Origin: Pleionea litopenaei
Lineage (GTDB): Bacteria; Pseudomonadota; Gammaproteobacteria; Enterobacterales; Kangiellaceae
DNA length: 64,000 bases
Direction of reading: 5' to 3'
NCBI RefSeq assembly: GCF_031198435.1
Contig: NZ_CP133548.1
Span: forward strand, 2,080,001-2,144,000
Shown: positions 1 to 24,113 of the stretch, piece by piece
Layout: every line of letters starts with the position of its first letter
How positions within the stretch are numbered: position 1 is the first letter of the stretch
Program-made: the position numbers and the translations under genes
The notes under the pieces: model-generated
The model's input: the letters and a program-made list of their open reading frames with translations, nothing else
What the model was told of the DNA's origin: nothing
Database searches by the model: none

Positions 1-152
1 TTCAAAAAAAGTTCAAAGCTGAGCAATTATAGAACAATATGGCTAATTAAGCGGCAGTAAAGGCGGATTTTTGTACTAACCCACTGCGCAAAAGCCATGC
101 GAAGCGTCTAGGCTTATAGTTAAATGAATTAGAAACTCAGAGCTTTTGCCCT

Positions 153-614
153 ATGGTAGTCACTCGACATCTATTAATAGTTGTCATCGTTACACTATTA
201 GTTGCGTGTTCCGAAGATCCCTCTTCGACCAACGCCGGATTGCCGGAACCTAAGATACCCATTCATAAGTTAGAAGAAGGAGAAGCCAAACGCCTAATAG
301 AAGAGTGCCTCGATAAATTAACACTCGATCAAGAAGAGTATTCCAATAAGATGGAAGGACAATTTGAAGCCATCAGTGAGCATACCGATGAATCTTATCG
401 AGGTCGCGTCCCCTCAAGTAGCTACGCATCGATGGAAAAGCGGCTCAAACAATTTGTACGATTTCGAACATTAAACTTAAGTTTTGCCTATTGGGGTTCG
501 GAGAGAACGCCCGAAGGGCATCTATCTCGCTATGTCTTGGTAAGGCACTGTCGAACCAACGGTCGAACCATCACAGATACGCTACGCTCAGGAAAAATTA
601 AACTCGCTCGCTGA
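153..614 (+). CDS. putative lipoprotein, function unknown
   Basis: A 153-residue protein I do not recognise. It begins with a short positively charged stretch, a hydrophobic segment (about residues 7-18) and a lipobox LVAC with Cys19, so it should be lipidated and held in the periplasm on the inner or outer membrane. The rest is hydrophilic, with Glu/Lys-rich helical stretches and two further cysteines (EECLDKL near the start, VRHCRTNG near the end) that could pair in the periplasm. The ribosome-binding site in front of the ATG is weak. It stands alone, 120 bases before the cyclophilin gene on the same strand, with no clear terminator between them. The lipoprotein call is well supported; no function can be given. 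Confidence 0.7.
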   Translation: MVVTRHLLIVVIVTLLVACSEDPSSTNAGLPEPKIPIHKLEEGEAKRLIEECLDKLTLDQEEYSNKMEGQFEAISEHTDESYRGRVPSSSYASMEKRLKQFVRFRTLNLSFAYWGSERTPEGHLSRYVLVRHCRTNGRTITDTLRSGKIKLAR

Positions 615-734
615 ACGATGTCTCCTTTTATCGGTCGAAGACTAGAGATTCAGCGATTGTCGGTAGATTTCTGAGACAGATTCGCTTAGTCTTTGCACCC
701 TTAATTTAAAACTAATAACTAAGCACCTATATAT

Positions 735-1514
735 ATGATGAAAAAACTAATTGCTGCGGTCATTTTGCCTTTTACTTTATCCGCACAGGCTACCGTTGTA
801 GAAATACAAACAAACTTAGGCACAATCGAAGTCAATCTATTTGATAATGCAACTCCAGAAACCGTGGAGAATTTCTTAGCCTATGTTAACAACGGATCAT
901 ATAACGGTTCTATTATGCATCGTTTAGAGCCAAACTTTGTATTACAAGGCGGCGGCTATGTTTATAACGGCAGTGATACCTTAACCGGCATCGAAACTGC
1001 GCCCCCAGTTGTTAATGAACCCGTCTACTCAAATGTTCGCGGAACCATTGCGATGGCGAAGCTGAGCGGCAACCCAGACAGCGCAACCGTTCAGTGGTTT
1101 ATCAATCTAGAAAATAACAGCGCAAACTTGGATGTTCAAAACGGTGGTTTCACAGTATTTGGGCAAGTCACCGCTGGAATGGATATTGTCGATACAATTG
1201 CTGCTTTTGATATCTTCAATTTTGGCGGCTCGCTCGGACAACTTCCGCTACGCGACTACACTGAAGAAGACTTTAATGGCGATCCAGACAACAACATTGA
1301 TCCTGTCACGCCAGACAGCACCAACTTTATCATTGTTGAAAATTTAGTCATCACCGATGCAACGGTAGATACAGCTAGTGGACTTAACCCCACTCCCAAC
1401 ACTTTAATCGATAACGTCAGTGAAGAGCCTTTCTCAGAATCGACTAAAACCGGTGCAATCCCCTTATCGGCATTGCTTTTATCTATTTTGGCTTTTTGGC
1501 GTCGTCGCGTTTAG
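735..1514 (+). CDS. secreted cyclophilin-type peptidyl-prolyl isomerase with C-terminal membrane anchor
   Basis: Cyclophilins catalyse cis-trans isomerisation of Xaa-Pro bonds and help fold exported proteins. The 259-residue product has an N-terminal signal peptide (MMKKLIAAVILPFTLSAQA) and a cyclophilin core with the family motifs MHRLEPNFVLQGGG (catalytic His-Arg), QWFINL and FTVFGQV. After the core, about 60 residues of Ser/Thr/Asn-rich linker lead to a hydrophobic segment (GAIPLSALLLSILAFW) ending in RRRV. That tail resembles a sorting/anchoring tail of the GlyGly-CTERM kind, although the glycine run is weak. Plain bacterial cyclophilins stop after the core at roughly 165-190 residues. 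Two adjacent ATGs (735, 738) are possible starts. The 3' end overlaps the convergent gene by about 32 bases. The family call is sure; the tail function is inferred. Confidence 0.9.
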   Translation: MMKKLIAAVILPFTLSAQATVVEIQTNLGTIEVNLFDNATPETVENFLAYVNNGSYNGSIMHRLEPNFVLQGGGYVYNGSDTLTGIETAPPVVNEPVYSNVRGTIAMAKLSGNPDSATVQWFINLENNSANLDVQNGGFTVFGQVTAGMDIVDTIAAFDIFNFGGSLGQLPLRDYTEEDFNGDPDNNIDPVTPDSTNFIIVENLVITDATVDTASGLNPTPNTLIDNVSEEPFSESTKTGAIPLSALLLSILAFWRRRV

Positions 1515-1974
1515 ACGCAGACTGCTCTTTATTGGCCATTGGGGCGTTTCGAATTCGCCCCAATGCCTTCTCTAGAACCCCTCGTGTTTTACCTGATACT
1601 TTACCTTCTGAATATTCTCGCTTGATCACCTGTTCAATCTGATCAACCAATTGGTCAATACTCACTTCTTCATCATCAGAGTCACGGTGTTGTTCAAATA
1701 GGTCAATTTTTCGCTCAGTACGGCGACCAAACGATAAAAGACGATCAAAGTGTTTTCGTTTTTGAGGATCACTCTCAAAGATGTCGACCAGGGTTACTAT
1801 GATTGAAAGCGGACTTAAAAGAATGTCGCGAATCGCATCTGCCGCCAGCTTCAGTTGAAAAACCCCAAGACGTTTCAAATGATACCAGTTCGATGGAGTC
1901 ATTGAACGATCAGAGCTTTCGCTGTCTTGTTGATGGGCTTTATTACCCTCTTCTTTCTCTGGGCTTTGTTTCAT
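1483..1974 (-). CDS. conserved hypothetical protein, about 163 residues
   Basis: I do not recognise a named family. The product has a charged, low-complexity N-terminus, a central amphipathic to hydrophobic segment (FQLKLAADAIRDILLSPLSI continuing through IIVTLVDIFES, about residues 40-70) that may sit on or in the membrane, then a charged helical part rich in Glu, Asp, Lys and Arg, ending in a basic tail (KRDDAKKPK). An ATG at 1974 is chosen; GTG codons at 1989 and 1986 would add five residues, and neither start has a convincing ribosome-binding site. The stop lies inside the end of the convergent cyclophilin gene. Good length, sensible composition and the position between two real genes support a genuine gene. 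Confidence 0.6.
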   Translation of the reverse strand: MKQSPEKEEGNKAHQQDSESSDRSMTPSNWYHLKRLGVFQLKLAADAIRDILLSPLSIIVTLVDIFESDPQKRKHFDRLLSFGRRTERKIDLFEQHRDSDDEEVSIDQLVDQIEQVIKREYSEGKVSGKTRGVLEKALGRIRNAPMANKEQSASKRDDAKKPK

Positions 1975-2366
1975 ACTGACTGACACCACTGATTATTCAA
2001 TATCTTTATCAATCATGATGCTCATTCAGAGCTGATCGATGTTTGGTTGGCAAATATATCAAAAACCAATCAGAAAGAAAGCATCCATTGGAGTCACTCG
2101 CTCATACCCCACTAAATATTTGCTCTAATTTCTTTCCTCAAATAAACGCATTTATCCCTTTAAAAACCGTCACTGAATGACTTAACCCGTTGAATTGACG
2201 CGTCTTAGTAATAAACGTCGCAATTCGATAAAAGCCTTTGCTCGATCATTCAAACCACTTGAACAACAATGGCTTCACTTGAGCAGCAAGGCATCTTGAC
2301 ACTCAAGGCATCAACCGAATTGTTGCTCGGGTTAAGAGCCAACAGAAGAATGGGAAAAGGAATAAC
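1975..2366. other. intergenic region with promoter of the RiPP cluster
   Basis: A 392-base stretch without a gene, between the divergent hypothetical gene and the ATP-grasp ligase gene. It holds the direct repeats and TTGACA box listed separately (2256-2301) and a ribosome-binding site AAGGA just before the ATG at 2367. A part of the region reads as an imperfect inverted repeat (GAGCAGCA near 2281 and TGTTGCTC near 2321). No RNA gene was seen. Confidence 0.6.
2256..2301 (+). promoter_or_regulatory. 20-bp-period direct repeat abutting a -35-like TTGACA
   Basis: Two near-identical copies lie head to tail: CACTTGAACAACAATGGC at 2256-2273 and CACTTGAGCAGCAAGGC at 2276-2292, a 20-base period (about two helical turns). 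The second copy ends four bases before TTGACA at 2296-2301. No good -10 sequence follows at 16-18 bases, as in many activator-dependent promoters. Direct repeats at two-turn spacing next to -35 are the usual layout for AraC-type activators. It sits 66-111 bases ahead of the ATP-grasp gene. The repeat is seen directly; its function is inferred. Confidence 0.45.
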
Positions 2367-3491
2367 ATGAGTAATAAATTATTAATACCAACGTATAGCG
2401 GAGATATTCATGCCGTTGCCGTGGAGCAAGCAATCCGTCAAAAAGGACACGATTGCTACCGCTGGCACGCTACGGACTTTCCCACTAAGCAATACATTAA
2501 CTATGTAAATGTTGGAACCCATTCAGACGCTACATACATCCTCTTAGATGAGCTTCAAGGTGAATTCAACATCGCGGACTTTGACACGGTTTGGCATCGC
2601 AGACCTTCTGAACCAGTATTACCAAAAGATCTGCATGAAGGCGATCGCATTCAAGCTCGACGCGAATCCATTGCTCTGGCCAAATCGATTTGGCATTTCG
2701 TTAATCCGAACGCTTTTTGGGTGAACCACTTTAATACCGTTTCTTACTCCGGCCTAAAACCACTGCAACTAAAAATTGCTAAACAGGTTGGCTTAAAGAT
2801 ACCCGATACCTTGATCAGTAATCAGCCAGAACAAATTCGTGAGTTTATCAAACTGCATCAAGGGAATCTTATTTACAAACCCCTAAATCAATTGGGTTGG
2901 ACTGGCGAAGATCGCTTCTATAGTGTTATTACCTCAAAAATATCCGAGGAAGATTTACCGAGCGATGAATACCTACGATTATCGCCAGGTATTTTTCAAC
3001 CCTATCAAGAAAAAGCCTACGAACTGAGAGTGACCTTTATGGGCAAGATGCCCATCGCAGCAAAGCTTCACTCTCAAGACAATGCAAGTACAGTGATTGA
3101 CTGGCGTACCTGCTCATATTCGAAAACAGAAATGACCGTAAGCCCTTACCAACTACCTGACAAGATTGTTGAGCAATGCTGGAAGCTCATGCAACAACTC
3201 GGCATAGTTTTTGGTTGCTTCGACTTTATTGTCACACCCGATCGCGAATATATCTTTTTAGAAGTCAATCCTATGGGCCAATTCTTGTGGGTCGAAGAGC
3301 TAAATCCCGACATTATGATGCTTGATGCATTTAGCGAATTCTTACTCGCTAAGACTGTCGATTTTCAATGGGCACCTTCGAAGTCATCCATAAGATATGA
3401 AGGCACACTTAAGCAAACTGCAAATAACTTAAACGCCGATGACCGAAACAGTCATCTAGAGCCAGAACGAACACTATTTCCAACAGATTAA
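2367..3491 (+). CDS. ATP-grasp ribosomal-peptide ligase (MvdC/MvdD-like, graspetide macrocyclase)
   Basis: A 374-residue ATP-grasp enzyme of the type that makes graspetides: it activates Asp/Glu side-chain carboxylates of a precursor peptide with ATP and joins them to Ser/Thr (ester) or Lys (amide) side chains. Visible landmarks: the N-terminal WHRRP segment (residues 76-80) common in this family, nucleotide-binding IYKPLNQLGW with Lys171, the YELRV strand (219-222) and the metal-binding residues Asp286, Glu299 and Asn301 in FGCFDF and FLEVNPMGQFLW. The length and NPxGQFLW motif match MvdC/MvdD-like ligases rather than RimK or glutathione synthetase. AAGGA precedes the ATG. It heads a same-strand run with a leader-core peptide, HlyD protein and C39 exporter, which supports the peptide-maturase reading. 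The ring topology cannot be told from sequence. Confidence 0.88.
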   Translation: MSNKLLIPTYSGDIHAVAVEQAIRQKGHDCYRWHATDFPTKQYINYVNVGTHSDATYILLDELQGEFNIADFDTVWHRRPSEPVLPKDLHEGDRIQARRESIALAKSIWHFVNPNAFWVNHFNTVSYSGLKPLQLKIAKQVGLKIPDTLISNQPEQIREFIKLHQGNLIYKPLNQLGWTGEDRFYSVITSKISEEDLPSDEYLRLSPGIFQPYQEKAYELRVTFMGKMPIAAKLHSQDNASTVIDWRTCSYSKTEMTVSPYQLPDKIVEQCWKLMQQLGIVFGCFDFIVTPDREYIFLEVNPMGQFLWVEELNPDIMMLDAFSEFLLAKTVDFQWAPSKSSIRYEGTLKQTANNLNADDRNSHLEPERTLFPTD

Positions 3492-3502
3492 AAAGAATTT
3501 GT

Positions 3503-3523
3503 CGGTTCTCGTATTGAGAGCCG
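3503..3523 (+). other. stem-loop upstream of the precursor gene
   Basis: CGGTTCTC (3503-3510) pairs with GAGAGCCG (3516-3523) across a five-base loop, with one G-U pair in an eight-base stem. It lies between the ligase stop and the precursor start, with no T-run after it. It could shape processing or stability of the precursor message. Confidence 0.4.
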
Positions 3524-3568
3524 GTAATAACCGCCAATAAGGCAAATTTAACTTTAAGGAGAAAACTT

Positions 3569-3748
3569 ATGTCTAACAAAACTGACAAACAAGAAAATCG
3601 CATTTTAGGTCGTATGGTTGCTCGAGAAATCAGCAATGAAGAACTTAAGCAGGTTTCTGGTGCTGCTTCTGGTGGTAGTGGCCATTCTTACAGCGGTCCA
3701 TTCCTACGTGGCCAAATCGACGATGCAAATCCTACTGATGATTTCTAG
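3569..3748 (+). CDS. graspetide-type RiPP precursor peptide with double-glycine-like leader (59 aa)
   Basis: A 59-codon gene with a strong ribosome-binding site (TAAGGAG, seven bases before the ATG). Leader, about residues 1-32: charged N-terminus, helix-like RILGRMVAREISNEELKQ and the ending ELKQVSGA, matching the EL..VSGG/GA pattern cut by C39 peptidases; cleavage is expected after Gly31-Ala32. Core, about 27 residues: Gly/Ser-rich ASGGSGHSYSGPFLRGQ, then acidic IDDANPTDDF. The core has four Asp (51, 52, 57, 58), several Ser and one Thr (56) but no Lys or Glu, so an ATP-grasp enzyme could make Ser/Thr-Asp esters but not Lys amides. It sits between the ligase and exporter genes, exactly where a precursor belongs. 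The core does not match the microviridin motif TxKYPSD. Ring pattern and bioactivity are unknown. Confidence 0.85.
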   Translation: MSNKTDKQENRILGRMVAREISNEELKQVSGAASGGSGHSYSGPFLRGQIDDANPTDDF

Positions 3749-3758
3749 TTGATTACAC

Positions 3759-3776
3759 GGGCGCCGAAAGGCGCCC
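3759..3776 (+). terminator. GC-rich GNRA hairpin after the precursor gene (attenuator or processing site)
   Basis: GGGCGCC (3759-3765), GAAA tetraloop, GGCGCCC (3770-3776): a perfect seven-base GC stem ten bases after the precursor stop. There is no following T-run, so it is more likely a partial terminator or 3' stabiliser giving more precursor than exporter transcript than a full stop. Confidence 0.5.
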
Positions 3777-3853
3777 ACACCCTTCGTTTGAACAGCTGTG
3801 TTTGAAGCAACTGCTTTAAATAAGCTTGCATCTGCTAATTTGGTTTATAACGC

Positions 3854-5098
3854 ATGAGTAACTTATTTCGCCAAGAAGCCATCGAATCTAAGACCGAACG
3901 CCTAATCGGCGAAGTCACTATTGCCTCTCAACCACGCTATAAACGTTTCACCCTTTTTACTTCAACGATTTTACTATTCGTCATTTTGATTGCTTATTCT
4001 ACTGAGTACTCTAAGGTCAAAACCGTTCAAGGCTATATTGAACCAACGTCAGGGGAAATAAAAATCTACGCGCCCATCGATGGACGCATTTCAAATATTT
4101 CCATCAGTGAAGACTCCTTGCTAGAAAAGGGGCAGCTCGTGGCAATCATTGACTCCATATACCATTCAAAAGATGTCAGTAATGTCGACCAATTCATTTC
4201 TGAAAAGTTATCTGCACAAAAGCAATACATCGAGCAACGAATCATCAACCAAGAACAGCTAAACATTGAAAAACGCATCATCATACAGAATCAGTTAGAT
4301 TCATTGCTTATTGAAATCGAGAAGTATGAAGAGAAAACATCGGTCGAAAAGCACTTACTCGATATGGCCGAAAAGAAAGTATCACAAGCCAAAAAGCTAC
4401 GCTCACTGAAACATATCTCTCTACAAGAATTTGAACAGATATCTGAAAAGCATGCTCAACAGCAACTCAGCCATATGAGCGCTCTGCTGGAGCTCCGAAC
4501 AAAGAAAAAACAAATGCAAACCATGAAAGGTGAGTTAAATCTTTTGAAAATAACGATGGCCTCTGAAATCAATCAACTAAAAGAAAAGCTCGCTGATATT
4601 AATATTCAGCAAGCTTCGATACAACGAGAGTCGACATCGAGTTTAATCAGTCCCATCGATGGTCGTGCTACTTCAATGAACATAAAACTGCACCAAGAAG
4701 TTAAACGAGGTGACCTACTGTTTACAGTTTATCCGTTAGAGCCAAAATATGAAGCGTCTATTCTTGTGCCTAGCCGGCTTTATGGTGACCTTAAATTGAA
4801 TCAAGAAATAATGATTAAATACTCAGCATTTCCCTTTAGGCGTTATGGCATTTATAAAGGCCGTATCAAAGAACTGCCTAAGACTATAACTCATCACCAA
4901 GACAACAGCAGCCCGGTTTATATTTCAGAGCCGTTTTACCGCGTTAAAGTGGCTATCAATGATCAGTCGTTAAGTTACAACAATGAAACATACCATTTAA
5001 CCTCAGGGTTGGTTTTTAACGCCGACATTGTTTTATCTAAACAACCATTAATAGAAGCTTTGTTGTTTCCAATATTCGAATCTTTGGACCAATCATGA
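3854..5098 (+). CDS. HlyD-family periplasmic adaptor of the peptide exporter
   Basis: A 414-residue membrane fusion protein. One N-terminal transmembrane helix (FTLFTSTILLFVILIAYS, about residues 31-50) is followed by a lipoyl-like barrel half (GEIKIYAPIDGRISNISISE), a long coiled coil (about 115-250, rich in Gln, Glu, Lys and Leu), the second half (SSLISPIDGRATSMNIKLHQ) and a C-terminal beta domain. This order is that of bacteriocin-type HlyD adaptors, which link an inner-membrane ABC exporter to an outer-membrane duct such as TolC. It ends in a four-base ATGA overlap with the C39 ABC transporter gene, so the two are translated together. No outer-membrane partner gene is near, so a general TolC elsewhere is assumed. 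The ribosome-binding site is weak. Confidence 0.9.
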   Translation: MSNLFRQEAIESKTERLIGEVTIASQPRYKRFTLFTSTILLFVILIAYSTEYSKVKTVQGYIEPTSGEIKIYAPIDGRISNISISEDSLLEKGQLVAIIDSIYHSKDVSNVDQFISEKLSAQKQYIEQRIINQEQLNIEKRIIIQNQLDSLLIEIEKYEEKTSVEKHLLDMAEKKVSQAKKLRSLKHISLQEFEQISEKHAQQQLSHMSALLELRTKKKQMQTMKGELNLLKITMASEINQLKEKLADINIQQASIQRESTSSLISPIDGRATSMNIKLHQEVKRGDLLFTVYPLEPKYEASILVPSRLYGDLKLNQEIMIKYSAFPFRRYGIYKGRIKELPKTITHHQDNSSPVYISEPFYRVKVAINDQSLSYNNETYHLTSGLVFNADIVLSKQPLIEALLFPIFESLDQS

Positions 5099-7203
5099 AC
5101 GCTCATTTGCCATCCCTCGCCTTTAAGAGAAAGAAGCAAGTATCACTTATTTTGCAGTCTGAAATGTCAGAGTGCTCCCTCGCTTGCTTAGCTATGGTTG
5201 CAGGATATTATGGGCACCAGGTTGATCTCAATAGCATGCGATTAAAGTTTCAAGTCACTTCGCGAGGCGCTACATTAGAAAGCCTGATCAGTAATGCTCA
5301 AACCCTCAACTTTGCCACTCGAGCGTTGCGACTTGAACCTGAGTTATTTGATCAACTCACGCTGCCCGCTATATTGCATTGGAACTTCAACCATTTTGTG
5401 GTTTTATCTGAGTGCAAAGATAATCAATTTACAATTTACGACCCTGCCGTCGGTAAGCGTCAGATTACATTTGAAACCTTGTCTAAAAGTTTTACCGGAA
5501 TAGCTCTGGAGTTAACTCCACTGCAAAACTTCGAGCAAATAAAAGATACGACTGAACTCAAAGTTTGGCAGCTTTGGTCTAAGGCCAATGGGCTCAAACG
5601 GTCTATAGCACAAATACTACTGCTTTCAGTGATCATACAACTCTGTTCAATGATTCTACCATTATTTATGCAGTTCTCGGTCGACAGCATTGTAATTTCA
5701 GAAGATATTAAATTGCTTTACGCGCTGGCGCTCGGCTTTTCCCTCTTTGCAGCTATTAAAGTCGGAACCGATTTACTCAGATCACATATCATTATCTATT
5801 TATCAAGTCATCTGTCCGTTCAGGTTGGTAATAATATTCTTAGCCATTTAATGTCATTGCCGCTTAAATGGTTTGAAAGTCGACACGTGGGTGATATTGT
5901 CTCTCGATTTTCATCTATTTATCCCATCAGAGACTTTATTTCTAAAGGTTTTGTCGAAGCCCTTGTCGATGGCACCATGGTTATCATTTCTTTAATTCTC
6001 ATGTTTATGTACAGCACAACTTTGGCCACCATTGTTCTTTCTGTAATTACTATTTATGCCATCGTTCGTTCAATCTTTTACACCCCGCTTAAAATCGCTC
6101 AAGAAGAGGAGCTTAGCGCAAAAGCAAAAGAAAATAGTAACTTTATGGAGACCATTAGAGCGGCTAAGACCATTAAGGCTTTCAGTAAAGAGGCGCAAAG
6201 ACAATCATTATGGCAAAGCTATTTTGTGTCAGCGACTAACTCACAAGTAAGATTATTAAAAGTCGATGTTGGCTTTAAAGCGGTGGTCGACGCTCTGCTA
6301 TCTTTAGAAAGTATTATTATTGTCGTAGTGGGAACACTGTTAGTCATTAATAACCAATTATCGATTGGGATGTTCTTTGCATTCTTTATTTACAAACAAC
6401 AATTTACGGATAAGTCTGTCACCTTAATTGAGAAATTTATTGAATTTAAGATGCTTAGACTGCACCTAGAAAGATTAAGCGACATTATTCTTTCAAAGCC
6501 CGAAAATATCGGTACCAAGGATTTATCCCGCGATCAATTCATACTGGGTCGAATTACAGTTAACGATCTTTCCTTTCAATTTAGTAAAAATGAACCTTTT
6601 GTATTCGCTCGTCTTAATTTCGATATTACCCCCGGTGAGTCTGTTGCGATCGTTGGGCCTTCGGGAGCAGGTAAGTCGACGCTGATGAAAATATTGATGG
6701 GTTTATTGGAACCTGTTAGTGGTGAAGTACTTTTAGATGGCATGAATGTGAAGACCATTGGAATCACTAATTATCGTCGTCAAATAGCGGCTGTTCAACA
6801 AGACGATGAACTGCTTTCTGGATCGTTAGCGGAGAACATTGCGTTTTTCTCAGACAAGATTGACTTTGAGCGAGTTCATCAATGCGCACAAATGGCTGCA
6901 ATTCATGATGACATCATGCAGATGCCAATGGGTTATAACACACTCGTAGGTGACATGGGTGCCGCATTGTCAGGCGGCCAGAAACAGCGCATTTTAATTG
7001 CGCGAGCGCTGTATCAACAGCCGAAAATATTATTGCTTGATGAGGCGACGTCGCATCTCGATGCTAAAACTGAGCGACTAGTGAACGAAGCAATAAAATC
7101 TCTCGCGATTACTCGAGTTTCTATCGCTCATCGCAAAGAAACCATTGAGTCAGCGGATCGCATTATTGATATTTCTCGCATTAACAATCCCTCGGCTCAC
7201 TAA
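5095..7203 (+). CDS. C39-peptidase-containing ABC transporter (PCAT), leader-cleaving exporter
   Basis: A 702-residue inner-membrane exporter that cuts double-glycine leaders and pumps out the released peptide. The N-terminal C39 peptidase (residues 15-135) keeps the full set: oxyanion Gln21, catalytic Cys27 in SEMSECSLACLAM, His100 in FNHFVVL and Asp116 in YDPA. A six-helix transmembrane domain follows (about 165-450), then an ABC ATPase with Walker A GPSGAGKST (about 521), signature LSGGQKQR (about 626) and Walker B ILLLDEATSHLD (about 646). An intact peptidase implies a double-glycine-type substrate, and the 59-residue precursor 1.3 kb upstream ends its leader in VSGA. The gene overlaps the HlyD gene by four bases. 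Only about 20 bases separate it from the convergent HTCS gene. Confidence 0.95.
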   Translation: MNAHLPSLAFKRKKQVSLILQSEMSECSLACLAMVAGYYGHQVDLNSMRLKFQVTSRGATLESLISNAQTLNFATRALRLEPELFDQLTLPAILHWNFNHFVVLSECKDNQFTIYDPAVGKRQITFETLSKSFTGIALELTPLQNFEQIKDTTELKVWQLWSKANGLKRSIAQILLLSVIIQLCSMILPLFMQFSVDSIVISEDIKLLYALALGFSLFAAIKVGTDLLRSHIIIYLSSHLSVQVGNNILSHLMSLPLKWFESRHVGDIVSRFSSIYPIRDFISKGFVEALVDGTMVIISLILMFMYSTTLATIVLSVITIYAIVRSIFYTPLKIAQEEELSAKAKENSNFMETIRAAKTIKAFSKEAQRQSLWQSYFVSATNSQVRLLKVDVGFKAVVDALLSLESIIIVVVGTLLVINNQLSIGMFFAFFIYKQQFTDKSVTLIEKFIEFKMLRLHLERLSDIILSKPENIGTKDLSRDQFILGRITVNDLSFQFSKNEPFVFARLNFDITPGESVAIVGPSGAGKSTLMKILMGLLEPVSGEVLLDGMNVKTIGITNYRRQIAAVQQDDELLSGSLAENIAFFSDKIDFERVHQCAQMAAIHDDIMQMPMGYNTLVGDMGAALSGGQKQRILIARALYQQPKILLLDEATSHLDAKTERLVNEAIKSLAITRVSIAHRKETIESADRIIDISRINNPSAH

Positions 7204-7224
7204 TGTACTACAAACCAATGATTT

Positions 7225-10200
7225 TTAGTTGCCCTGCACTTGCTTAGGCGTCTTTCCAAACTTTGCTTTAAAACAGCTAGAAAAATGTGGCACTGTTGAA
7301 AAACCACACTCAAAGGCAACAACTTTAATAAGATCGCCTTGCTCCAATCTTGAATGTGCTTTATTCAAACGAAAATGTCTAAGGTACTCATTCGGAGAAT
7401 AATCGATTAAACTTTTCAGCTTCCGTTGTAATTGTCTTTCGGAATAACCTAGCGTTAAAGCGAGTTTCGCCGCATTAAACTTGTTATCGCTGTAATGCTC
7501 GTCAATCGTTTCATCCAACTTACTCAAAAACCGTTGGTCAATTGAACTGATCTCAAATACATTGTCATCCGTGCCTTGAACATCAACATTTTGCTCAAGC
7601 GATTCAACACCTTCGCTAGACAGCCCCACTTGAACGGTTTGTTGGGCAAATCGGTGCCTTAGTATTTCTCGTATCGACAGCAGGTTATCTATCCGGAGTA
7701 ACAACTCATCTTCATCGAAAGGCTTAGTCAGGTATTCATCGACATTCTTTTGCCAACCTGTCACACGACTTTCTTTATCTCCTCTCGCGGTCAAGAGTAT
7801 GATCGGAATATGACTGGTTTTTTCATTGTTTTTTAAACTTTCACTGACGGCGAAACCATCCTGCTTAGGCATCATAACATCACTGATAATTAGGTCCGGT
7901 ATGTGCTCGCAAGCGAGTTCGATTCCTTCTGCCCCATTTTTTGCTGTGATACAGCGATAATTAGTGTTGACGGTTTCTTTTATGTACTCTCGCATATCAG
8001 CATTGTCTTCAATCACCAGAATCAATGCGCGATTATCATCATTTTCATCGACCGAAAAGTCGTTGAGGTTAGCGGCAACTTGAGAGCTTTGACCTTTAAG
8101 GGACTCTAGCTCTAACTCCACCGCTTCCGAACTCAATATTTCGCTTATCGCTCCTTCAATAGGCGCTTCGATTCTCGGCCAGGTCACTGTAAAAGTGCTA
8201 CCTTCGCCTAATTGGCTGGATAGTTCAATTGTGGCGTTATGTTGATCGAGTAACTCTTTGACCAAGGACAGGCCGATACCCGCACCGGTAATTGACTCGC
8301 TATTTTCATCATTGACACGCTCAAAGCGTTCAAAGATTAGCGACTGTTGTTCGCTTGGGATCCCAAGACCTGTATCTTCAACTAAAAATTCAAAAGATTC
8401 TCCTTTTCGGCAAAGTACCGTTCTTATCTCACCGTATTCAGGAGTGTATTTCAGAGCATTTGACAGTAGATTAAGAATTACTTTTTCGACTGACTCTTTT
8501 GTCGATAAGCACCAAATGTCATTTTCAAACTCGACTCGAAATTTTATATTTCTTAATAGACAAAGATCTTCAAAGGAGTCGGTAATAAATTTATACAACT
8601 GGCTAACCGGAACTGGCTTTCGCTTCATCGCTTTATTTACACGCAGCTTTTCTAAATAAATGAGCTGATCAACCATGCGCATCAAACGAAATGTATTTTT
8701 CTTAACTAAGGTTAATTTATTTTTTTTCTCGTTGTCAGGCTCTTGTTCCAGCAGTCTGGTAACTGGACCCAAAACTAACGTGAGTGGCGTTCTAAACTCG
8801 TGAGATACATTGGCGAACTCTCGATTTTTTGTTTGCAATAAATGCTCTACATTCTGCTTTTCTTCGGCTAGCTCTCTAGTTCGTAAATCTACCGCTTTTG
8901 CCAGCTGATTCGCGCGCATTTGTAGTCTTCTCGTTTTAAAATAATAAAATACCAAGACTATGATGATTGCTGAAAGTAAGTAACTAATTTTTGCGATATT
9001 ACTTAAATACCATGGAGGCAGTACTTCAATTGAAACTTGATTAAAGTCATTTAACCATCTTCCGCTAAGTGATGATGCATTCATTTGAAGTTGGTAATGG
9101 CCAATAGGCAATCGATTCAATACAATAGGTTCTCCAGTTTCAACTTCAACCCATTCATCAATGACGCCTGGTATTCGGTAACGCATTTTAAATGTGTTTG
9201 AAAATACATACTCATAACTTGAAAGGTTTATTTTTAATAAGGAATGAGAGTGATTTAGCTGTATTGATTTAAGCTCATCTAACTGAACACCCTGATAAGA
9301 TCCAATATAATCATAGCGATTGAGCTCTTCATGAAAGCTCAACCCCGAGACCGTTGGATTATTAATTTCTTTGGATATATCGAGGTTTTCAGGATAAAAC
9401 CAATATAGTCCGTCTGCTCCCGAAAAAACGATGAGCTCACCAGACTGAGAAATGCTCGCTCCCACTTCATAGCTAACATCCTCTAAACCAAAGTCTTCAC
9501 CAATTTTAAAAAAAGAGTGATCTGCCCAAAGATAAATGCCTTTTTCTGTGCCAGCCCAAATGCGACCTTGATTATCTTTTACAAAACTGTAAGACGATAT
9601 TGACGAGATCTTCTTGATATTTTCTAGTTCATATCGTTTATTGATAGTTGCAATATAGGTCCCTTTACCAATAATACTGAATAGGTAGTTTCGATTTTCT
9701 AATTCAGCAAAGGCATAAACGGTTCCTACATCACCGAGCTCACTGAATGACTGGAATGAACCATTTCTGCGATCAAATTTTACTAGCCCGAAATCGGTGC
9801 CTAGAATAAAAAAATCATCTAACGGAGTTATCGTTTGTATTCGATTGATTAATGCAGAGTTAGTACTTGAGTCTCTAAATACGTTAAACGCTCTACTTTT
9901 AGGATAAAACTCAATCAGACCTAACATTGAGGCTAGGTAGAGCTTTTCTCCCTCGAGATAAATATTATTAATATTGTTGAAGGCATAATCCTCTAACTTA
10001 TTACTATTAACGAGTGTAAGCTTTTTACCATTCCATTGATAAAGCCCCACACCAGCGGAGCCGACAAAAACATTGTCGCCATCACCTAATGCCAATGAAT
10101 ATACATTTTGAAACGATTTACGATAGCGTTCTGTTGTTAACAATGAACAAACACCTGATGCAACATCAATTTTGAATACACCGTCATTGAACGCACTAAT

Positions 10201-11250
10201 GAAAACCTGTTTATCTTTTTGCTTGGTAGCATAAATCCCTCGAGTCTTTACGCAAGATAGACTGTCGCTCTCGTAACTCAGGTGTTTGAAAATGGCTTGC
10301 TGTCGTTGAACCAACAACATTCCGTCACCTTGAGTGTGAATTCGCAGGGTAAATTCGTCCGCAATTTCGATTCGTTCAATTTTTGGTGGAGGGTCATTCC
10401 AAGTTTTTAGTTTAAGTTTTTCGCTAGGGTTTAGATTCTGAGCCTCAATGATTTTGCCTTGAAAGGTGCCAGCGTATAAATTCGACTGATCAATGGCGAA
10501 GGTGACAAATCGGTCATCTGCATCGCCAATATCGGATATGCTTAACTTTGCCTTATCTACTCCTAGCAAATAAATTTTTTCATTGGTAGCCACCCAGAGC
10601 GATTCTTGCTCGCATTGAATATCAACAATAACCTCTTTCCCAAACTGCTCAACTCTTTCAGCAACATGGCTTTGACTTGTCTTATTAATCTTGAGTAGCC
10701 CTTCTGATGTTGCAATAAATAATTGATCACTGTGGCAAGAAAGGACTCGATAAGCATATCCGGTAAAGCCTTTAGGAGGCGCGATGGTTTTGGTCAAAGA
10801 CAGTTGTTGTGTAAATACACGCGTTTCACCTAGACGATTAGTCACCCACCAGAGATCGCGATTAAAATGACTTCCGATAAAGTAATTGCCGAGCGCATTA
10901 CTATTCACTTTGTCGGTATAGGCTTGAGATGTTTGATCGGGTAAGTTAACTAAATTGATGCCCGCTTGCGTTGAAACTAACAATTGATGTTGATTAATTG
11001 TCAGGTCAGTGATTCGTAAATCGGTAAGATTATTATTTAAGCTATTCAGCGGTTTTAGTTGAACACCGTCGTAATAGTAAAGACCAGAATTCGCACCTAA
11101 CCAAAGCGCACCAACATCGTCGGACACGGCAGAAGTCGTAAATTCGGGACCGTGAGTAAATGATTGATTAATTCTTTTTGAAATTTCTCCATAGCCATTG
11201 CAACAGAACAATACTAGAGAAAACGCCAAATACTTAATTCTATGTAACAA
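7225..11250 (-). CDS. hybrid two-component sensor/AraC regulator (HTCS) with beta-propeller sensor
   Basis: A 1341-residue one-protein signalling system. Order: signal sequence; periplasmic two-component-regulator propeller repeats (about residues 30-650, many 'GVGLYQWNGKKL' and 'IWAGTEKGIYLW'-like blades); Y_Y_Y domain (about 680-755); transmembrane helix (about 763-785); HisKA with phospho-acceptor His in NVSHEFRTPLTL (about 816); HATPase (GTGLGIPSEQ and GAGIGLSLV motifs); receiver with phospho-acceptor Asp in LIISDVMMP (about 1123) and KPF Lys; AraC DNA-binding domain (about 1230-1341). It should sense an extracytoplasmic ligand and directly bind DNA. The start is TTG with AGGGA ahead. It follows, 71 bases downstream, a secreted CxxC protein gene on the same strand and faces the RiPP exporter convergently, so it could regulate that cluster; that link is inference. 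Confidence 0.93.
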   Translation of the reverse strand: MLHRIKYLAFSLVLFCCNGYGEISKRINQSFTHGPEFTTSAVSDDVGALWLGANSGLYYYDGVQLKPLNSLNNNLTDLRITDLTINQHQLLVSTQAGINLVNLPDQTSQAYTDKVNSNALGNYFIGSHFNRDLWWVTNRLGETRVFTQQLSLTKTIAPPKGFTGYAYRVLSCHSDQLFIATSEGLLKINKTSQSHVAERVEQFGKEVIVDIQCEQESLWVATNEKIYLLGVDKAKLSISDIGDADDRFVTFAIDQSNLYAGTFQGKIIEAQNLNPSEKLKLKTWNDPPPKIERIEIADEFTLRIHTQGDGMLLVQRQQAIFKHLSYESDSLSCVKTRGIYATKQKDKQVFISAFNDGVFKIDVASGVCSLLTTERYRKSFQNVYSLALGDGDNVFVGSAGVGLYQWNGKKLTLVNSNKLEDYAFNNINNIYLEGEKLYLASMLGLIEFYPKSRAFNVFRDSSTNSALINRIQTITPLDDFFILGTDFGLVKFDRRNGSFQSFSELGDVGTVYAFAELENRNYLFSIIGKGTYIATINKRYELENIKKISSISSYSFVKDNQGRIWAGTEKGIYLWADHSFFKIGEDFGLEDVSYEVGASISQSGELIVFSGADGLYWFYPENLDISKEINNPTVSGLSFHEELNRYDYIGSYQGVQLDELKSIQLNHSHSLLKINLSSYEYVFSNTFKMRYRIPGVIDEWVEVETGEPIVLNRLPIGHYQLQMNASSLSGRWLNDFNQVSIEVLPPWYLSNIAKISYLLSAIIIVLVFYYFKTRRLQMRANQLAKAVDLRTRELAEEKQNVEHLLQTKNREFANVSHEFRTPLTLVLGPVTRLLEQEPDNEKKNKLTLVKKNTFRLMRMVDQLIYLEKLRVNKAMKRKPVPVSQLYKFITDSFEDLCLLRNIKFRVEFENDIWCLSTKESVEKVILNLLSNALKYTPEYGEIRTVLCRKGESFEFLVEDTGLGIPSEQQSLIFERFERVNDENSESITGAGIGLSLVKELLDQHNATIELSSQLGEGSTFTVTWPRIEAPIEGAISEILSSEAVELELESLKGQSSQVAANLNDFSVDENDDNRALILVIEDNADMREYIKETVNTNYRCITAKNGAEGIELACEHIPDLIISDVMMPKQDGFAVSESLKNNEKTSHIPIILLTARGDKESRVTGWQKNVDEYLTKPFDEDELLLRIDNLLSIREILRHRFAQQTVQVGLSSEGVESLEQNVDVQGTDDNVFEISSIDQRFLSKLDETIDEHYSDNKFNAAKLALTLGYSERQLQRKLKSLIDYSPNEYLRHFRLNKAHSRLEQGDLIKVVAFECGFSTVPHFSSCFKAKFGKTPKQVQGN

Positions 11251-11280
11251 AAACGCAATCCCTTATTTACTGAACATCGA

Positions 11281-11306
11281 CTGAGCCTAACGTAAATTAG
11301 GCTCAG
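11281..11306 (-). other. perfect 10-bp intercistronic stem-loop
   Basis: CTGAGCCTAA (11281-11290) pairs perfectly with TTAGGCTCAG (11297-11306) across a six-base loop, between the CxxC protein gene and the HTCS gene downstream of it. No T-run follows on the minus strand, so it may stabilise or process the message, or only partly terminate it. Confidence 0.5.
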
Positions 11307-11320
11307 AAAAGATGTTTAAT

Positions 11321-12238
11321 CTACAGCTCTGGGTCGATTCCCTGTGGCGGATTCGAACGACAATTTCCAACAGTACATTGAGGTGGAATTCGCGGATCTC
11401 TTATCCATTCATCTTCTTTTGCTGAACTAGTCCGATAAAAACCGGCTAATATATTTCCGCTTGAGTCAGTTTGACGACAAAATACGTATTGAACACTTTT
11501 CGCACAAACAAAAAAGTCATCATAGGCTACTGTCGGAGATATTGAACTTCCTGTCACGGTCACCAAATTATCACTGCCTAATTGCGTTGTGTAAAGGACA
11601 TCCCACTGATAGCTATTGTCTGGTTTCTGAATGAGGGTCACGGCATAACCATCGTTAGTATTCACTCGAACGATCAACGACTTGTCGACGAAGAAAAACG
11701 GATCAAAGCTTGCGTTACCAACGGCTTGATTAATCGCACCTTGATAAGTACTCGCAAAGTTACTGCTATTCAACCATGTAATATTAGTGGTCGAGGTATC
11801 TAAAGTGACTTCAATGACATTCCTAGTAAACATGGTGTAGTCATTTGTGCTCATACTGCTTAGCTGAGAGATGTAATTGGAATAGGCCGTTTGGAAAGCA
11901 AGATCGACTGACTCAAGGGAGAAGGAGACCTCTTCAATGAACATAGGCTCATTCGGATTAGAGAAATCCATTCGACGTTGCACGGTTTTGCGAATTTGGC
12001 GAATTGAGCCAGCCGTAACATCACCAATGATACTTGAAGGATTAGCATCAACAACAATCATCAAGTTTGGGCTGCCAAAATAGTAGTGGTGCTGCTGTGC
12101 TAACTCGATGTAATCTGCATCAGAAACGCAGTCATAGCATGATGCATAGCGAACATTATCTTTAGTCACGAACGCTGATCCACTGCATGCACCAAACACA
12201 GCAACCATTAGCACCAGAGAACGAAATAAAATTTTCAT
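11321..12238 (-). CDS. secreted CxxC protein, putative periplasmic partner of the adjacent HTCS
   Basis: A 305-residue exported protein of no family I can name. A signal sequence covers about residues 1-22; FGAC at Cys18 could also be a non-ideal lipobox. The mature start carries CYDC (Cys34, Cys37), and more cysteines occur in DDFFVCAKS, YVFCRQT and QCTVGNC near the C-terminus, so several disulfides are likely. It is clearly a paralogue of the product of 23178-24113: both have an N-terminal CxxC followed by a D-D/G-D-Y/F motif, a central (F/I)(D/N)PF.FV block followed by a 'ND.Y.V..I' stretch, and similarly placed later cysteines. Both genes lie directly upstream of a propeller HTCS gene. 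A good AAGGA precedes the ATG. A role in ligand binding or tuning of the kinase is inferred from this repeated pairing only. Confidence 0.75.
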   Translation of the reverse strand: MKILFRSLVLMVAVFGACSGSAFVTKDNVRYASCYDCVSDADYIELAQQHHYYFGSPNLMIVVDANPSSIIGDVTAGSIRQIRKTVQRRMDFSNPNEPMFIEEVSFSLESVDLAFQTAYSNYISQLSSMSTNDYTMFTRNVIEVTLDTSTTNITWLNSSNFASTYQGAINQAVGNASFDPFFFVDKSLIVRVNTNDGYAVTLIQKPDNSYQWDVLYTTQLGSDNLVTVTGSSISPTVAYDDFFVCAKSVQYVFCRQTDSSGNILAGFYRTSSAKEDEWIRDPRIPPQCTVGNCRSNPPQGIDPEL

Positions 12239-19007: not shown

Positions 19008-22000
19008 CTAAACATAATCACCGGGCGACTTCCCTGTGTATTTTTTAAACTCTTGACTAAAGTATGAGTGTGATGAAAAACCAACTTCAAAAGAAACAAC
19101 GGAAGGTTTTTCGCCATTTCTCAACATGACCATGGCCTTTTCAATTCTAAATTGTTTAATCAGCTCGTTTGGGGTAATCCCCATAAGAGCTTTCAATTTA
19201 CGGCGAAGCTGTCGGTCACTCATAAATAACTGTTGCGCTAACCAATCAACATTTAGCTTATCGTCACTGAATGATTCTGCCAAGAGCGATTTGATTTTTT
19301 CAATAAACTGAGAGTCTCTCTCAGAGACGGCTGACGCTTCATCAATGGATGAATCGGTGGATGACTCTATAGTTGAATCACTGACTTGAAGAGCGGGACT
19401 AAAAGCGGCTTTCGTATAATAACTTTGAAGTTTGGCTCTTAAATTTAAGAGACTTTTGATTCGTACGATAATTTCGTCATCATCAAACGGCTTAGTTAAA
19501 TACTCATCTGCAAGTAATTCCCAGCTCTGAATTCGACTATCTTTGTCCACTCGAGCGGTTAACATCAACACCGGTATATGACTGGTGGTTTCTTCTGACT
19601 TTAACGTTTTACAAACTTGATGACCACTCAAACCGGGCATCATGACATCACTCACAATAATATCAGGCACCAAATTCTTAGCGATCTTTATCCCTTCTTC
19701 GCCATTCGTGGCCGTTACACATTGAAATTGCTCGCCAATAACTTGAGCAATGTAGTATCGCATGCCAGGATCGTCTTCAATAACCAACACAACGGGAGAG
19801 TCATCATCAAGTGTTGACGTATCAAACTGAAAGCTTTCGCCGACAACTTGTCGCTCAGGGTTAAGGTCTTCCCCTAAAGAGAATACCTCACTTTTAGAAT
19901 GATGCTGTTCATCAGGCGATCTTTGTAAATTTGACGCTTCCGATAAGTTTGACCAAGTCTGCTTTTGCTTATTCTCGATCACACATGGTATCGATAGACT
20001 GAATTTTGTCCCTTCACCCAGTTTACTCTGTAGCTTAACAGTCCCGCCATGAGCGTTAACAATTTCTTGTACGACCGATAGCCCTACACCACTCCCTTGA
20101 GCAATTAAACTTCCATTTTCAGCTCGCTTAAACTTTTCGAAGACACGATTCAAAATTTCTTTCGGCATTCCAATACCAGTGTCTGATACTTGAATGTTTA
20201 ACACGTCTCCAGACGCCGTAATACTTAGATCGATACTACCGCCTTCTCGATTGTACTTGATCGCATTAGACAATAGATTTGATATGATTTTTTCTATCGA
20301 ATCGTGCAAAACATTGACACATATTCCAGTTTCAACATGTGAGCGGAACACTAATCCTGCAGATTGCGCCGCATACTCATAAGCATAAACAATATCTTCT
20401 ACGATGCCATCGAGTAAATAAAACTGTTTAGGCAAAGCTTTATTGACCTTTAGCTTTTCAATTTCAAGAAGCTCGTCGACTAATTTCAATAAGCGTTCTG
20501 CATTGGTTTGAATTAGCTTTAAAGACGTTTTTTGCTCTTCACTAACGTGCGTTAAAAGCCTTTTAACCGGGCCAAGAATCAAAGTTAACGGTGTTCGAAA
20601 CTCATGCGAAATATTAATAAACTCATTGTTCTTTTGTTGCAATAGCTTCTCGACAATCGACTTTTGTACCGCGAGCTCTTTTGTGCGAAGCCTCACGGCC
20701 ACTTCAAGATCTGCCGCTCGCTTAAGTAACGATCTTGAACGATAGCGGAATATAACGAGAGGCGTAACAACAATTAGTAGAATGTAAGCGATCTTTGCCC
20801 AGAAACTCAGCCACCAAGGAGGCGCAACATTTAAAGTAATCGAAGTCACTTTATTACTCCACTGTCCTGAAGCGTCTGTTGCATTGATAATTAACTGAAA
20901 ACTGCCCGAAGGCAAATTGGAAAAACTCGCGGTTCGAGAGCCCCTGGGTGTTTCTAGCCACTGCTCATGATAGCCACTTAATTTATATCGATAGCGAGTG
21001 TTATTTCCAGATAGATAATTTAAAGCAGAGAATTCAAAACCAACGAATTTATCTAAATAACTTAGTTCAATGTTGTTTGACAACCCAATCGACAGGCCTT
21101 GAGTATATCGAGAAACCTCTTGGGTGTTGACAATGCTGTTATCAATAAAAAATTCCGTTATGACTGGAGAGTAAGATAATAGCGCTCGCTCTTCTGGCTT
21201 ACTCGTTATTACATTAAATCCATTCAATCCTGCAAAGTAGATTTTATTCTTGAGCAAATTAACCGTACTGGTTGTCGAAAACTCATTGGCTTGAAGCCCT
21301 TGCTCTACGGAATAGTTAGTGATCAATTGAGAGTTTAAGCTTAAATTAAAGACACCTTGATTAGTGCTCGCCCAAATGTTCTGCAAATAATCCTGTTCGA
21401 TGGCATATACGGTGTTATTTGGCAGGCCTTGTTGTTGCGTATAATGTTGTACATTATCTTGATTGTAATCATACAAACCATCTCCGCCAGTACCAATCAA
21501 TAAGTGACTCGAGTCAGTGTAATAAAATCGATAAATCGGCGAAGTAATTTCCAAAAGTGCCTTTGGTATTTTTTCTAAATCGACTTTACCTGTGTGTGTA
21601 TTAAGCCGAGTTAGTCCATGCTGAGTACCTATCCAGAGATACGGACTGTTCGGTTGTTTTAGTAAATTGAAAATCTGAGGTATACGTTCACTTCCGGCTA
21701 TCATCAACTTACTGAAATGCGTAAATTTATGTGAACGCATATCAAACTTTGCCAAACCACCCTGCGTTCCTAACCATAAGCTTTCCCCTTCTTTTTCAAT
21801 CGAGAATACATCCAGGTTGAGCAAGCCATCCTCTGGTAAATTCGCATTAGCAAATAGATTAAACTTAACTCCGTCAAAATGAAGCAAGCCTAAACCAGCC
21901 GTGCCAAACCACCATTCATGGTCACTTCCTTGTTGCATACTGACAATAGATTTCAAAGCTTGATTGACCAATGGCAGAGTATGCCGATCAAAGACTTCAC

Positions 22001-23165: not shown

Positions 23166-23177
23166 AAGATTCGATTC

Positions 23178-24113
23178 TTAAGGTTGACTGCCATTACCAG
23201 CCTGACACGTCGTTGAGCCTGCGGGGCAACCTCCTGTCGGTGGCGGACAATTTATTTTACACCCGTCGGAATAAATAACCTCTGCAACTGCCCTAGCAAA
23301 TATTCCTCCATAAGCTTGATTATCCGAATCTACAGCACGACAGGTCTCTCCATAACCAGTCGCTAAACACAAGTGATTGGCGTTAACTAAATTTAAAAGG
23401 TTGAGCTGGTTGCCACTCTCATCCAAGTAGGCATTGTCATCCTTTATATAAAATACTTGCCACGTACGAGACTCGTCTAAGTTCGTATCCGCAATCATCA
23501 CAACAAAGTAATCATCGTTAGACTCCAACTCTACCGCTAAAGGTGTGTTAACAAAATGAAACGGGTTGATATAACTAAGGCCTAGTCGAGCTTCAATCAA
23601 TGTACTTGCTTGTTCGTAAAAGCTACCATTGCCCGACCAATCAACGTTGGTTTTTCCTAGATAAAGTTTGTTCCATGTTCCCGTAATCGACTCCGTAAAA
23701 CCCAGGTAAGGATCAAACACATACATGTCTTCAAATTTTTGATTATTGTTTAAAAACATCGAATAGGCTTCTTCCGTATATAGGCTATTCGGACGCACCA
23801 CAGCGGACATTACCGTTTCGGTACCTCTCTGTCTCCCCCGTGGTCCATTAATCACTCGCGACTGCCAACTAACACGTACCGTTTTAACACGATTGATGAC
23901 CGAGTTTACCAAGACGTAATTTTTATGAATTCCGCTGATTGGAATATCTTCAGAATAGGGGTAGTTATTTTCAAAATGTAGCCGCGCCTTGTTAATAAAG
24001 TCACCATCATTACTGCAACCGCTGCACTGCATATAATAAGTATCATCAAGGTAAACATCGGCTTGCAAACAGGCTACCCAAGCCAATAGAAGTAAAATTA
24101 AAATCTTTTTCAT
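23178..24113 (-). CDS. secreted CxxC protein, paralogue of the 11321-12238 product
   Basis: About 311 residues. Signal peptide MKKILILLLLAWVACLQA; mature start with CSGC in YYMQCSGCSNDGDFINKA, which aligns with YASCYDCVSDADYIELA of the other copy; central SYINPFHFVNTPLAVELESN (compare SFDPFFFVDKSLIVRVNTN); later cysteines in NHLCLATGYGETCRAV and a Cys-rich C-terminus (DGCKINCPPP, GGCPAGSTTC). The ATG at 24113 has AGAGGG just ahead, so the longer TTG start at 24128 is not preferred. It is the first gene of a two-gene unit with the propeller HTCS only 12 bases downstream. An extracytoplasmic, disulfide-containing ligand-binding or signalling partner for that kinase is the best guess; no named family is recognised. 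Confidence 0.75.
   Translation of the reverse strand: MKKILILLLLAWVACLQADVYLDDTYYMQCSGCSNDGDFINKARLHFENNYPYSEDIPISGIHKNYVLVNSVINRVKTVRVSWQSRVINGPRGRQRGTETVMSAVVRPNSLYTEEAYSMFLNNNQKFEDMYVFDPYLGFTESITGTWNKLYLGKTNVDWSGNGSFYEQASTLIEARLGLSYINPFHFVNTPLAVELESNDDYFVVMIADTNLDESRTWQVFYIKDDNAYLDESGNQLNLLNLVNANHLCLATGYGETCRAVDSDNQAYGGIFARAVAEVIYSDGCKINCPPPTGGCPAGSTTCQAGNGSQP

What the first reader, a model, noticed from the sequence alone, without database searches (positions are those of the whole stretch)
2256..7203. Compact graspetide-like RiPP cluster with a C39-peptidase exporter
Seen: an MvdC/MvdD-like ATP-grasp gene, a 59-codon precursor gene, an HlyD gene and a C39 ABC exporter gene with all catalytic residues, in one run on one strand. 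Known: MvdC/MvdD-like ligases make omega-ester or omega-amide rings, and PCATs cut double-glycine leaders. Inference: a single ligase forms Ser/Thr-Asp macrolactones on the core, then the PCAT removes the leader during export. The core does not fit the microviridin, plesiocin or thuringinin motifs as I know them, and no SPASM partner, acetyltransferase or second ligase is present, so this may be an undescribed graspetide group.
Basis: partly seen in the sequence, partly recalled or inferred. Interest (0 to 1): 0.88.

Follow-up and report, generated by a model that had tools for sequence, protein, structure and literature searches.

The report
Divergent graspetide cluster with C39 exporter
This is a real four-gene bacterial recipe for a small ring-tied peptide that is clipped and exported by its own transporter; it belongs to a known class (graspetides), in a branch dominated by Legionella, but its peptide core has a pattern of its own.

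Summary

It is not a new kind of system. C39 exporters are the commonest companion of these ligases (PMC8939145). At the network cut-off used in print, the ligase joins a mostly Legionella clade; a Legionella graspetide, Gra-7 (group 8), lost three waters per precursor in E. coli (PMC9576775).

Distinctive: best ligase identity about 45%; precursor behind the ligase; no HEAT-repeat gene (present in 54 of 85 loci); the core lacks the D-x3-D-x3-D and Thr/Ser ladders common among relatives and has four Ser, then four Asp, no Lys, no Cys. Best reading: one ligase makes two to four Ser-Asp esters, then the PCAT cuts after Gly-Ala and exports. Ring number and activity are unproven.

The parts
2367..3491 (+). 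graspetide-synthetase-type ATP-grasp ligase, 374 aa
   Evidence: ATPgraspMvdD Pfam hit; TIGR04185/04187/04184 at 203/197/195 bits, all below their curated cut-offs; AlphaFold2 model pLDDT 88.7, pTM 0.89, nine best rows are graspetide synthetases
3569..3748 (+). precursor peptide gene, 59 aa, strong AAGGAG ribosome-binding site
   Evidence: leave-one-out leader HMM E 5.5e-9; sequence
3569..3664 (+). leader, residues 1-32: RILGRMVARE motif, then double-glycine-type EISNEELKQVSGA
   Evidence: alignment A2: R11 and G31 invariant in 18 of 18 rows
3665..3745 (+). predicted 27-residue core: Ser at 2, 5, 8, 10; Asp at 19, 20, 25, 26; Thr 24; no Lys, no Cys
   Evidence: positions; core boundary inferred from the double-glycine spacing
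3759..3776 (+). G+C hairpin (7-bp stem, GAAA loop) directly behind the precursor; possible 3'-end stabiliser or attenuator
   Evidence: fold of 3735-3800: -21 kcal/mol, z -2.87, 1 of 200 shuffles as stable
3854..5098 (+). HlyD-family periplasmic adaptor, 414 aa
5095..7203 (+). PCAT: C39 peptidase + ABC exporter, 702 aa; C39 domain about 5143-5520
   Evidence: best NCBIfam NHLM_micro_ABC1, 506 bits, below cut-off 853; full-length match to PCAT1 4ry2; C39 domain to 6mpz, E 3.5e-23
1990..7224 (.). segment present here and missing between the same neighbours in two same-genus genomes
   Evidence: L151 and L152 gene orders

Best explanation
A graspetide biosynthetic module. The ligase binds the N-terminal RILGRMVARE segment of the precursor leader, uses ATP to phosphorylate Asp side chains near the C-terminus of the core, and joins them to Ser hydroxyls near its N-terminus, giving two to four omega-ester rings. 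Because the four Ser all precede the four Asp, with the loop GPFLRGQI between, the most likely shape is a stem-loop with nested cross-links. The PCAT peptidase then cuts after Gly-Ala (residue 32) and, with HlyD and an outer-membrane channel encoded elsewhere, exports the 27-residue product. Shown here: the genes, fold, conserved residues, leader conservation, absence of the cluster at the same site in two relatives. Inferred: leader binding, ester formation, nested topology, cut site, export. Likely role: a secreted protease inhibitor or inter-bacterial peptide; the loop Arg makes a trypsin-like protease a first target to test (guess).
Against: No chemistry is shown for this ligase or a close relative; best ligase identity is about 45%. 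The core lacks the D-x3-D-x3-D found in 50 of 97 family cores and the [ST]x2-3[ST]x3[TS]G found in 37 of 97, so donors and acceptors cannot be read from a conserved pattern; segregation of Ser before Asp in this one core has chance 0.014. The ligase misses the curated cut-offs of the three MvdC/MvdD/SAV_5884-type NCBIfam models. Relatives often carry a HEAT-repeat gene that is absent here; if it is a needed partner, this cluster may behave differently or be defective. I did not compare the actual L. pneumophila Gra-7 ligase.
Confidence: 0.85

Rival explanations
1. The ligase and exporter are real but the cluster is degenerate or silent: the core has drifted after loss of the HEAT-type partner and is no longer ring-closed.
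For: Core lacks the ladder motifs of many relatives; HEAT-repeat gene absent from the cluster and no match in the own genome with one query (no positive control); no promoter- or terminator-like signal above chance.
Against: All four frames are intact with conserved active-site residues; 31 of 85 family loci lack the HEAT gene, several with intact HlyD and PCAT (L036, L039, L052, L069, L090, L104, L105), so absence is normal outside the Legionella part of the tree.
Confidence: 0.1
2. The ATP-grasp enzyme makes a different bond, such as adding amino acids to the peptide end or side chain (RimK-like) rather than closing rings.
Against: RimK family model scores 18.8 bits against 203 for MvdC; all nine rows above RimK are ring-closing synthetases; cores of the family pair donors and acceptors.
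Confidence: 0.03
3. The product is cut elsewhere: after the second small-residue pair (ASGG, residue 36) rather than after Gly-Ala 32, giving a 23-residue core with three Ser.
For: A Gly-Gly pair does follow at residues 35-36.
Against: Spacing of the double-glycine leader (Leu at -7, Val at -4) fits Gly-Ala 31-32; relatives show the same register.
Confidence: 0.1

Closest known systems
Gra-7 graspetide of Legionella pneumophila, group 8 (PMC9576775; section 11 and passages read)
   Same: Gammaproteobacterial, one ATP-grasp, double-glycine precursors cut by a C39 domain; Carter et al. (PMC13097080, section 7 read) report high co-occurrence of group 8 with NHLM-type exporters; the window's ligase joins the Legionella-rich component of my network at scores 70, 75, 80
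   Different: Two precursors there, one here; I did not see the Gra-7 sequences, so identity of group 8 with this clade is inference; ring positions unknown in both
Legionella-type loci fetched here (for example L025, L072, L085, L091)
   Same: Leader R-h-[LMF]-[AGS]-...-A/S plus double glycine; ligase, HlyD, PCAT
   Different: They have precursor(s) before the ligase, a HEAT-repeat gene between ligase and HlyD, and mostly T-x3-T-x3-[TS]G...D-x3-D-x3-D cores
Non-Legionella relatives L031, L036, L044, L052/L069, L104, L105, L124
   Same: RIL[AG]Rx2A leader type, no HEAT gene; L031 and L124 also have the precursor directly behind the ligase
   Different: Each has a different short core, several rich in Cys; none resembles the window core; L124 has a Tiki/ChaN-like gene next door
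OEP6-1 and amycolimiditide (PMC12291112, introduction read)
   Same: Stem-loop graspetides with three and four nested ester cross-links, the topology proposed here
   Different: Different ligase families; amycolimiditide also carries an aspartimide, and no methyltransferase gene lies in this cluster
Microviridin MdnC/MdnB
   Same: Fold and active-site columns; a Nostoc microviridin locus also has a PCAT and an HlyD gene
   Different: Two ligases, PFFARFL leader and TxKYPSDW-type core (recalled) there; none here; tree places MvdC/MvdD outside the 89-row clade with the window

Membership tests
Graspetide synthetase (ligase family) | MvdD-type pre-ATP-grasp domain plus ATP-grasp fold | tested here: met
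Graspetide synthetase (ligase family) | Conserved ATP/Mg and core-binding residues | tested here: met
   Invariant K131, K171, E219, R221, D286, E299, N301 and others in 41 of 41 rows; aligned with MdnC, MdnB, AMdnB, CdnC; their catalytic roles are recalled
MvdC or MvdD equivalog (microviridin ligases) | Score over the curated cut-off | tested here: not met
   202.8 against 425 and 195.1 against 475 bits; outside their branch in the tree
Graspetide (RiPP class) | Side-chain ester or amide rings installed on the precursor | not testable with these tools
   needs mass spectrometry
Graspetide (RiPP class) | Precursor with leader and core holding donors and acceptors beside the ligase | tested here: met
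Legionella-rich (group-8-like) clade | Ligase joins the clade at alignment score 70 | tested here: met
   component of 77 of 100 rows at 70, 68 at 75, 67 at 80; 89-row clade, support 100/99, window at its unresolved base
Legionella-rich (group-8-like) clade | Core with T/S ladder and D-x3-D-x3-D | tested here: not met
   window core has neither; not universal: 50 of 97 and 37 of 97 cores
Legionella-rich (group-8-like) clade | HEAT-repeat periplasmic gene between ligase and HlyD | tested here: not met
   absent from the window; present in 54 of 85 loci
Published group 8 | Published group assignment of the ligase and core motif | tested here: inconclusive
   Gra-7 sequences and the group motif lists were not available to me
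Plesiocin (group 2) and microviridin cores | TTxxxxEE repeats; TxKYPSDW-type core (both recalled) | tested here: not met
   window core ASGGSGHSYSGPFLRGQIDDANPTDDF
PCAT substrate and exporter | Double-glycine leader; C39 Cys/His/Asp; ABC motifs | tested here: met
   cleavage itself not testable here

The most novel reading that the evidence does not exclude
The window's cluster is the first seen example of a separate core type in this ligase clade: an all-ester stem-loop with three or four nested Ser-Asp rungs and an exposed FLR loop that inhibits a trypsin-like protease. More broadly, this clade reads one conserved leader (RhLxRxxA plus double glycine) while its cores change almost completely from lineage to lineage, so ring pattern is set by the core rather than by the ligase subfamily.
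Probability: 0.3. Interest if true: 0.55.

Novelty: new variant of a known kind. Interest (0 to 1): 0.37.

Why it matters
If the ligase closes Ser-Asp rings on this core without any partner gene, it is a minimal two-gene (plus exporter) system, useful for testing how one ligase clade copes with cores that share almost nothing. The comparison also links a HEAT-repeat periplasmic gene to the Legionella part of the clade, where D-x3-D-x3-D cores occur (33 of 54 loci with the gene, 4 of 31 without; relatedness not corrected for), a partner or immunity candidate that the open papers I read do not discuss. For the field at large this is one more predicted graspetide among the more than 20,000 counted in PMC13097080.

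Tried and rejected
Unusual-architecture claim: rejected, since C39 exporter and HlyD rank first and fourth among companions of ATP-grasp ligases (PMC8939145, Table 1), and a Nostoc microviridin locus has both. Cyclophilin upstream (735-1514) as a rosaritide-style partner: rejected; rosaritide's partner is PpiC-type, this one is cyclophilin-type, lies beyond an opposite-strand gene, and stays with that gene where the cluster is absent. Foreign base composition: not seen; G+C 0.38-0.42 inside, 0.36-0.45 within 5 kb outside. Promoter and terminator scans: at chance, 13 found against 12.4 expected, 5 against 4.9. Rfam: no match in 1-12000. Repeats at the edges that would mark a transposon: none convincing. 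Phage origin: two phage records and two IMG/VR contigs hold distant ligases, about 29-30% identical. First scan of genome contigs with the window ligase alone found nothing; the second, with alignment A1, found 284 relatives, of which the tool kept 80; I dropped L035, L053, L055 as duplicates of L023, L024, L025. First parsing of cores kept only 32 of 101 and was replaced; three frames (L103, L039, L090) stayed unparsed. Tree: window position inside the 89-row clade is unresolved and several branches are long. HEAT gene search in the own genome was empty but had no positive control. Novelty in print was searched; supplements could not be opened, and Ramesh 2021 and Choi and Link 2023 are not held. 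Reading of papers: PMC8939145 abstract, sections 5-7 and passages; PMC13097080 abstract, sections 5, 7, 8 and passages; PMC9576775 section 11 and passages; PMC12291112 section 5 and passages; PMC10885120 passages.
Full report
Observation. The window carries, on the + strand, an ATP-grasp ligase (2367-3491), a 59-aa precursor (3569-3748), an HlyD adaptor (3854-5098) and a peptidase-containing ABC exporter (5095-7203). HlyD and exporter overlap by four bases. The precursor has a clear AAGGAG site and is followed by a 7-bp G+C hairpin with a GAAA loop (3759-3776; -21 kcal/mol for 3735-3800, z -2.87), which may protect the precursor message or damp read-through into the exporter genes (inference). 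The own genome (4.42 Mb, three contigs, unnamed) has one such ligase.

Relatives. Of 99 near genomes 6 including the own one had a ligase at E 1e-10; of 369 class genomes 7 including the own at 1e-30; of 394 order genomes 12 including the own at 1e-40 with the alignment A1. A scan of about 85,000 species genomes with A1 found 284 relatives; the 80 kept are mostly Legionella and other Legionellales, with Lysobacter, Oxalobacteraceae, Nitrosomonas, Microbulbifer, Azospirillum, Bradyrhizobium, Myxococcota, Acidobacteriota and others. In a 100-row tree 89 rows form a clade (support 100/99) apart from Nostoc MvdC/MvdD, a Streptomyces TgmB, a plesiocin-like ligase and a further family of the order; the window sits at its unresolved base with a long branch. 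In an all-against-all network the window's best score is 85.8 (L031, 40.9% identity; L032 45.1%), and it shares the large component with Legionella at 70, 75 and 80. PMC13097080 used 70 to draw its groups. By that yardstick the window's ligase belongs to a described group, most likely group 8, to which PMC9576775 assigns Gra-7 of Legionella pneumophila; I could not compare Gra-7 itself, so this last link is inference.

The precursor. A leader HMM from 69 precursors with the window left out gives the window ORF 30.8 bits, E 5.5e-9, the next of 495 ORFs E 2. Six double-glycine precursors of other systems score 1.9-13.9 bits with the same model, so about half of the window's score is beyond the generic motif. 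With only the N-terminal half, the result depends on the model: E 2.5, third place, with an 83-row mostly Legionella model; E 5.4e-4, first place, with 17 non-Legionella 13-mers, two of them one residue out of register. Iterated over 86 loci the leader family has 101 frames at E under 0.01 in 72 loci. Arg 11 and Gly 31 are invariant and Ala 18 nearly so in an 18-row alignment. No further copy exists in the own genome: the only other match, E 0.39, is the precursor of a lanthipeptide cluster.

The cores. Of 101 frames 98 could be parsed, giving 97 unique cores, median 29 residues. D-x3-D-x3-D is in 50 of 97 (mean 0.99, at most 4, in 500 shuffles); [ST]x2-3[ST]x3[TS]G in 37 of 97 (mean 3.1, at most 9). 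96 of 97 hold a donor and an acceptor, and S/T lie on average before D/E in 92 of 96. So relatives look like stem-loop graspetides with a donor strand followed by an acceptor strand. These counts do not correct for relatedness. The window core, ASGGSGHSYSGPFLRGQIDDANPTDDF, shares the order (four Ser, loop, four Asp; chance 0.014 by shuffling) but not the spacing. Without Lys only esters are possible.

Architecture. In 51 loci with at least 3.5 kb before and 4.5 kb after the ligase, HlyD and PCAT were both found on the same strand in 31, of which 24 also have a HEAT-repeat gene; 10 of the 51 had none of the three by my homology thresholds. The HEAT gene (HEAT_2 over its cut-off in L023, L025, L024; below it in L026; no HEAT hit in L007, which is recognised by similarity) is found in 54 of 85 loci and is missing from the window. 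Loci with it more often have D-x3-D-x3-D cores (33 of 54) than loci without (4 of 31). Most parsed precursors lie before the ligase (88 of 97 precursor positions counted); in the window, L031, L074 and L124 the precursor directly follows it.

Mobility. In same-genus genomes G003 and G001 the hybrid histidine kinase and the 168-aa protein that flank the cluster here are direct neighbours (110 and 520 bases apart), with the cyclophilin gene beyond. G004's contig ends near the site, next to an IS200-like transposase gene, and G002 has the 168-aa gene elsewhere. None of G001-G004 has a ligase of this clade at 1e-40. Gain in this lineage is therefore more likely than repeated loss, but base composition gives no sign of recent transfer.

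Mechanism. Published graspetide synthetases phosphorylate an Asp or Glu carboxylate and let a Ser, Thr or Lys side chain attack it (PMC13097080, introduction). Gra-7 shows that one ATP-grasp with double-glycine precursors yields three dehydrations, and that a C39 domain removes the leader of one of the two precursors (the other was not cut). I transfer this to the window: two to four Ser-Asp esters, nested stem-loop as in OEP6-1 (three) or amycolimiditide (four) (PMC12291112), leader cut after Gly-Ala 32, export through PCAT and HlyD. Product activity is a guess; rosaritide, another PCAT-linked graspetide, showed no growth inhibition in a small panel.

Verdict. What is new is the orphan core and the compact, HEAT-free, ligase-first layout. 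New variant of a known kind; interest moderate.

Noticed in passing
G000:C1 about 2796700-2803400 (L154:3700-10359, - strand): A second PCAT + HlyD set in the own genome, with an 897-aa class III lanthipeptide synthetase (RamC_N, kinase, LANC_like) and a double-glycine precursor; a similar set in same-genus G004 (L155).
   Followed up: partly
L013:6104-7364 (same-genus G001): A plesiocin-like precursor with four TT[ML]A[LI]GEE repeats beside a distant ATP-grasp ligase; an HlyD + PCAT pair lies nearby on the other strand.
   Followed up: no
L009, L010, L011, L125, L126: Another ATP-grasp RiPP-like family in the order: precursors of the type KLFAFKv...ARDGVxTAGC...C, followed by the ligase, genes of about 290, 170 and 185 aa and an ABC protein.
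   Followed up: no
for example L025:6065-7126 (-), L007:8103-9146 (+): HEAT-repeat, apparently secreted protein with a VDxYG start, between ligase and HlyD in 54 of 85 family loci; partner or immunity candidate.
   Followed up: partly
L058, L061, L062, L064, L067, L077, L083, L098 and others: A second core type in Legionellales, often in tandem with the ladder type: roughly IPTxxxTGxxxxPD...D.
   Followed up: no
window 7225-12238 and 19008-24128: Two copies of a pair: hybrid histidine kinase with AraC-type end (30% identical to each other) and a 305-aa secreted-protein gene (24% identical).
   Followed up: no
KF114876.1 (Leptospira phage record), MT835913.1, IMG/VR L160 and L161: MvdD-like ATP-grasp genes in phage or viral-contig records, about 29-30% identical to the window ligase.
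   Followed up: no
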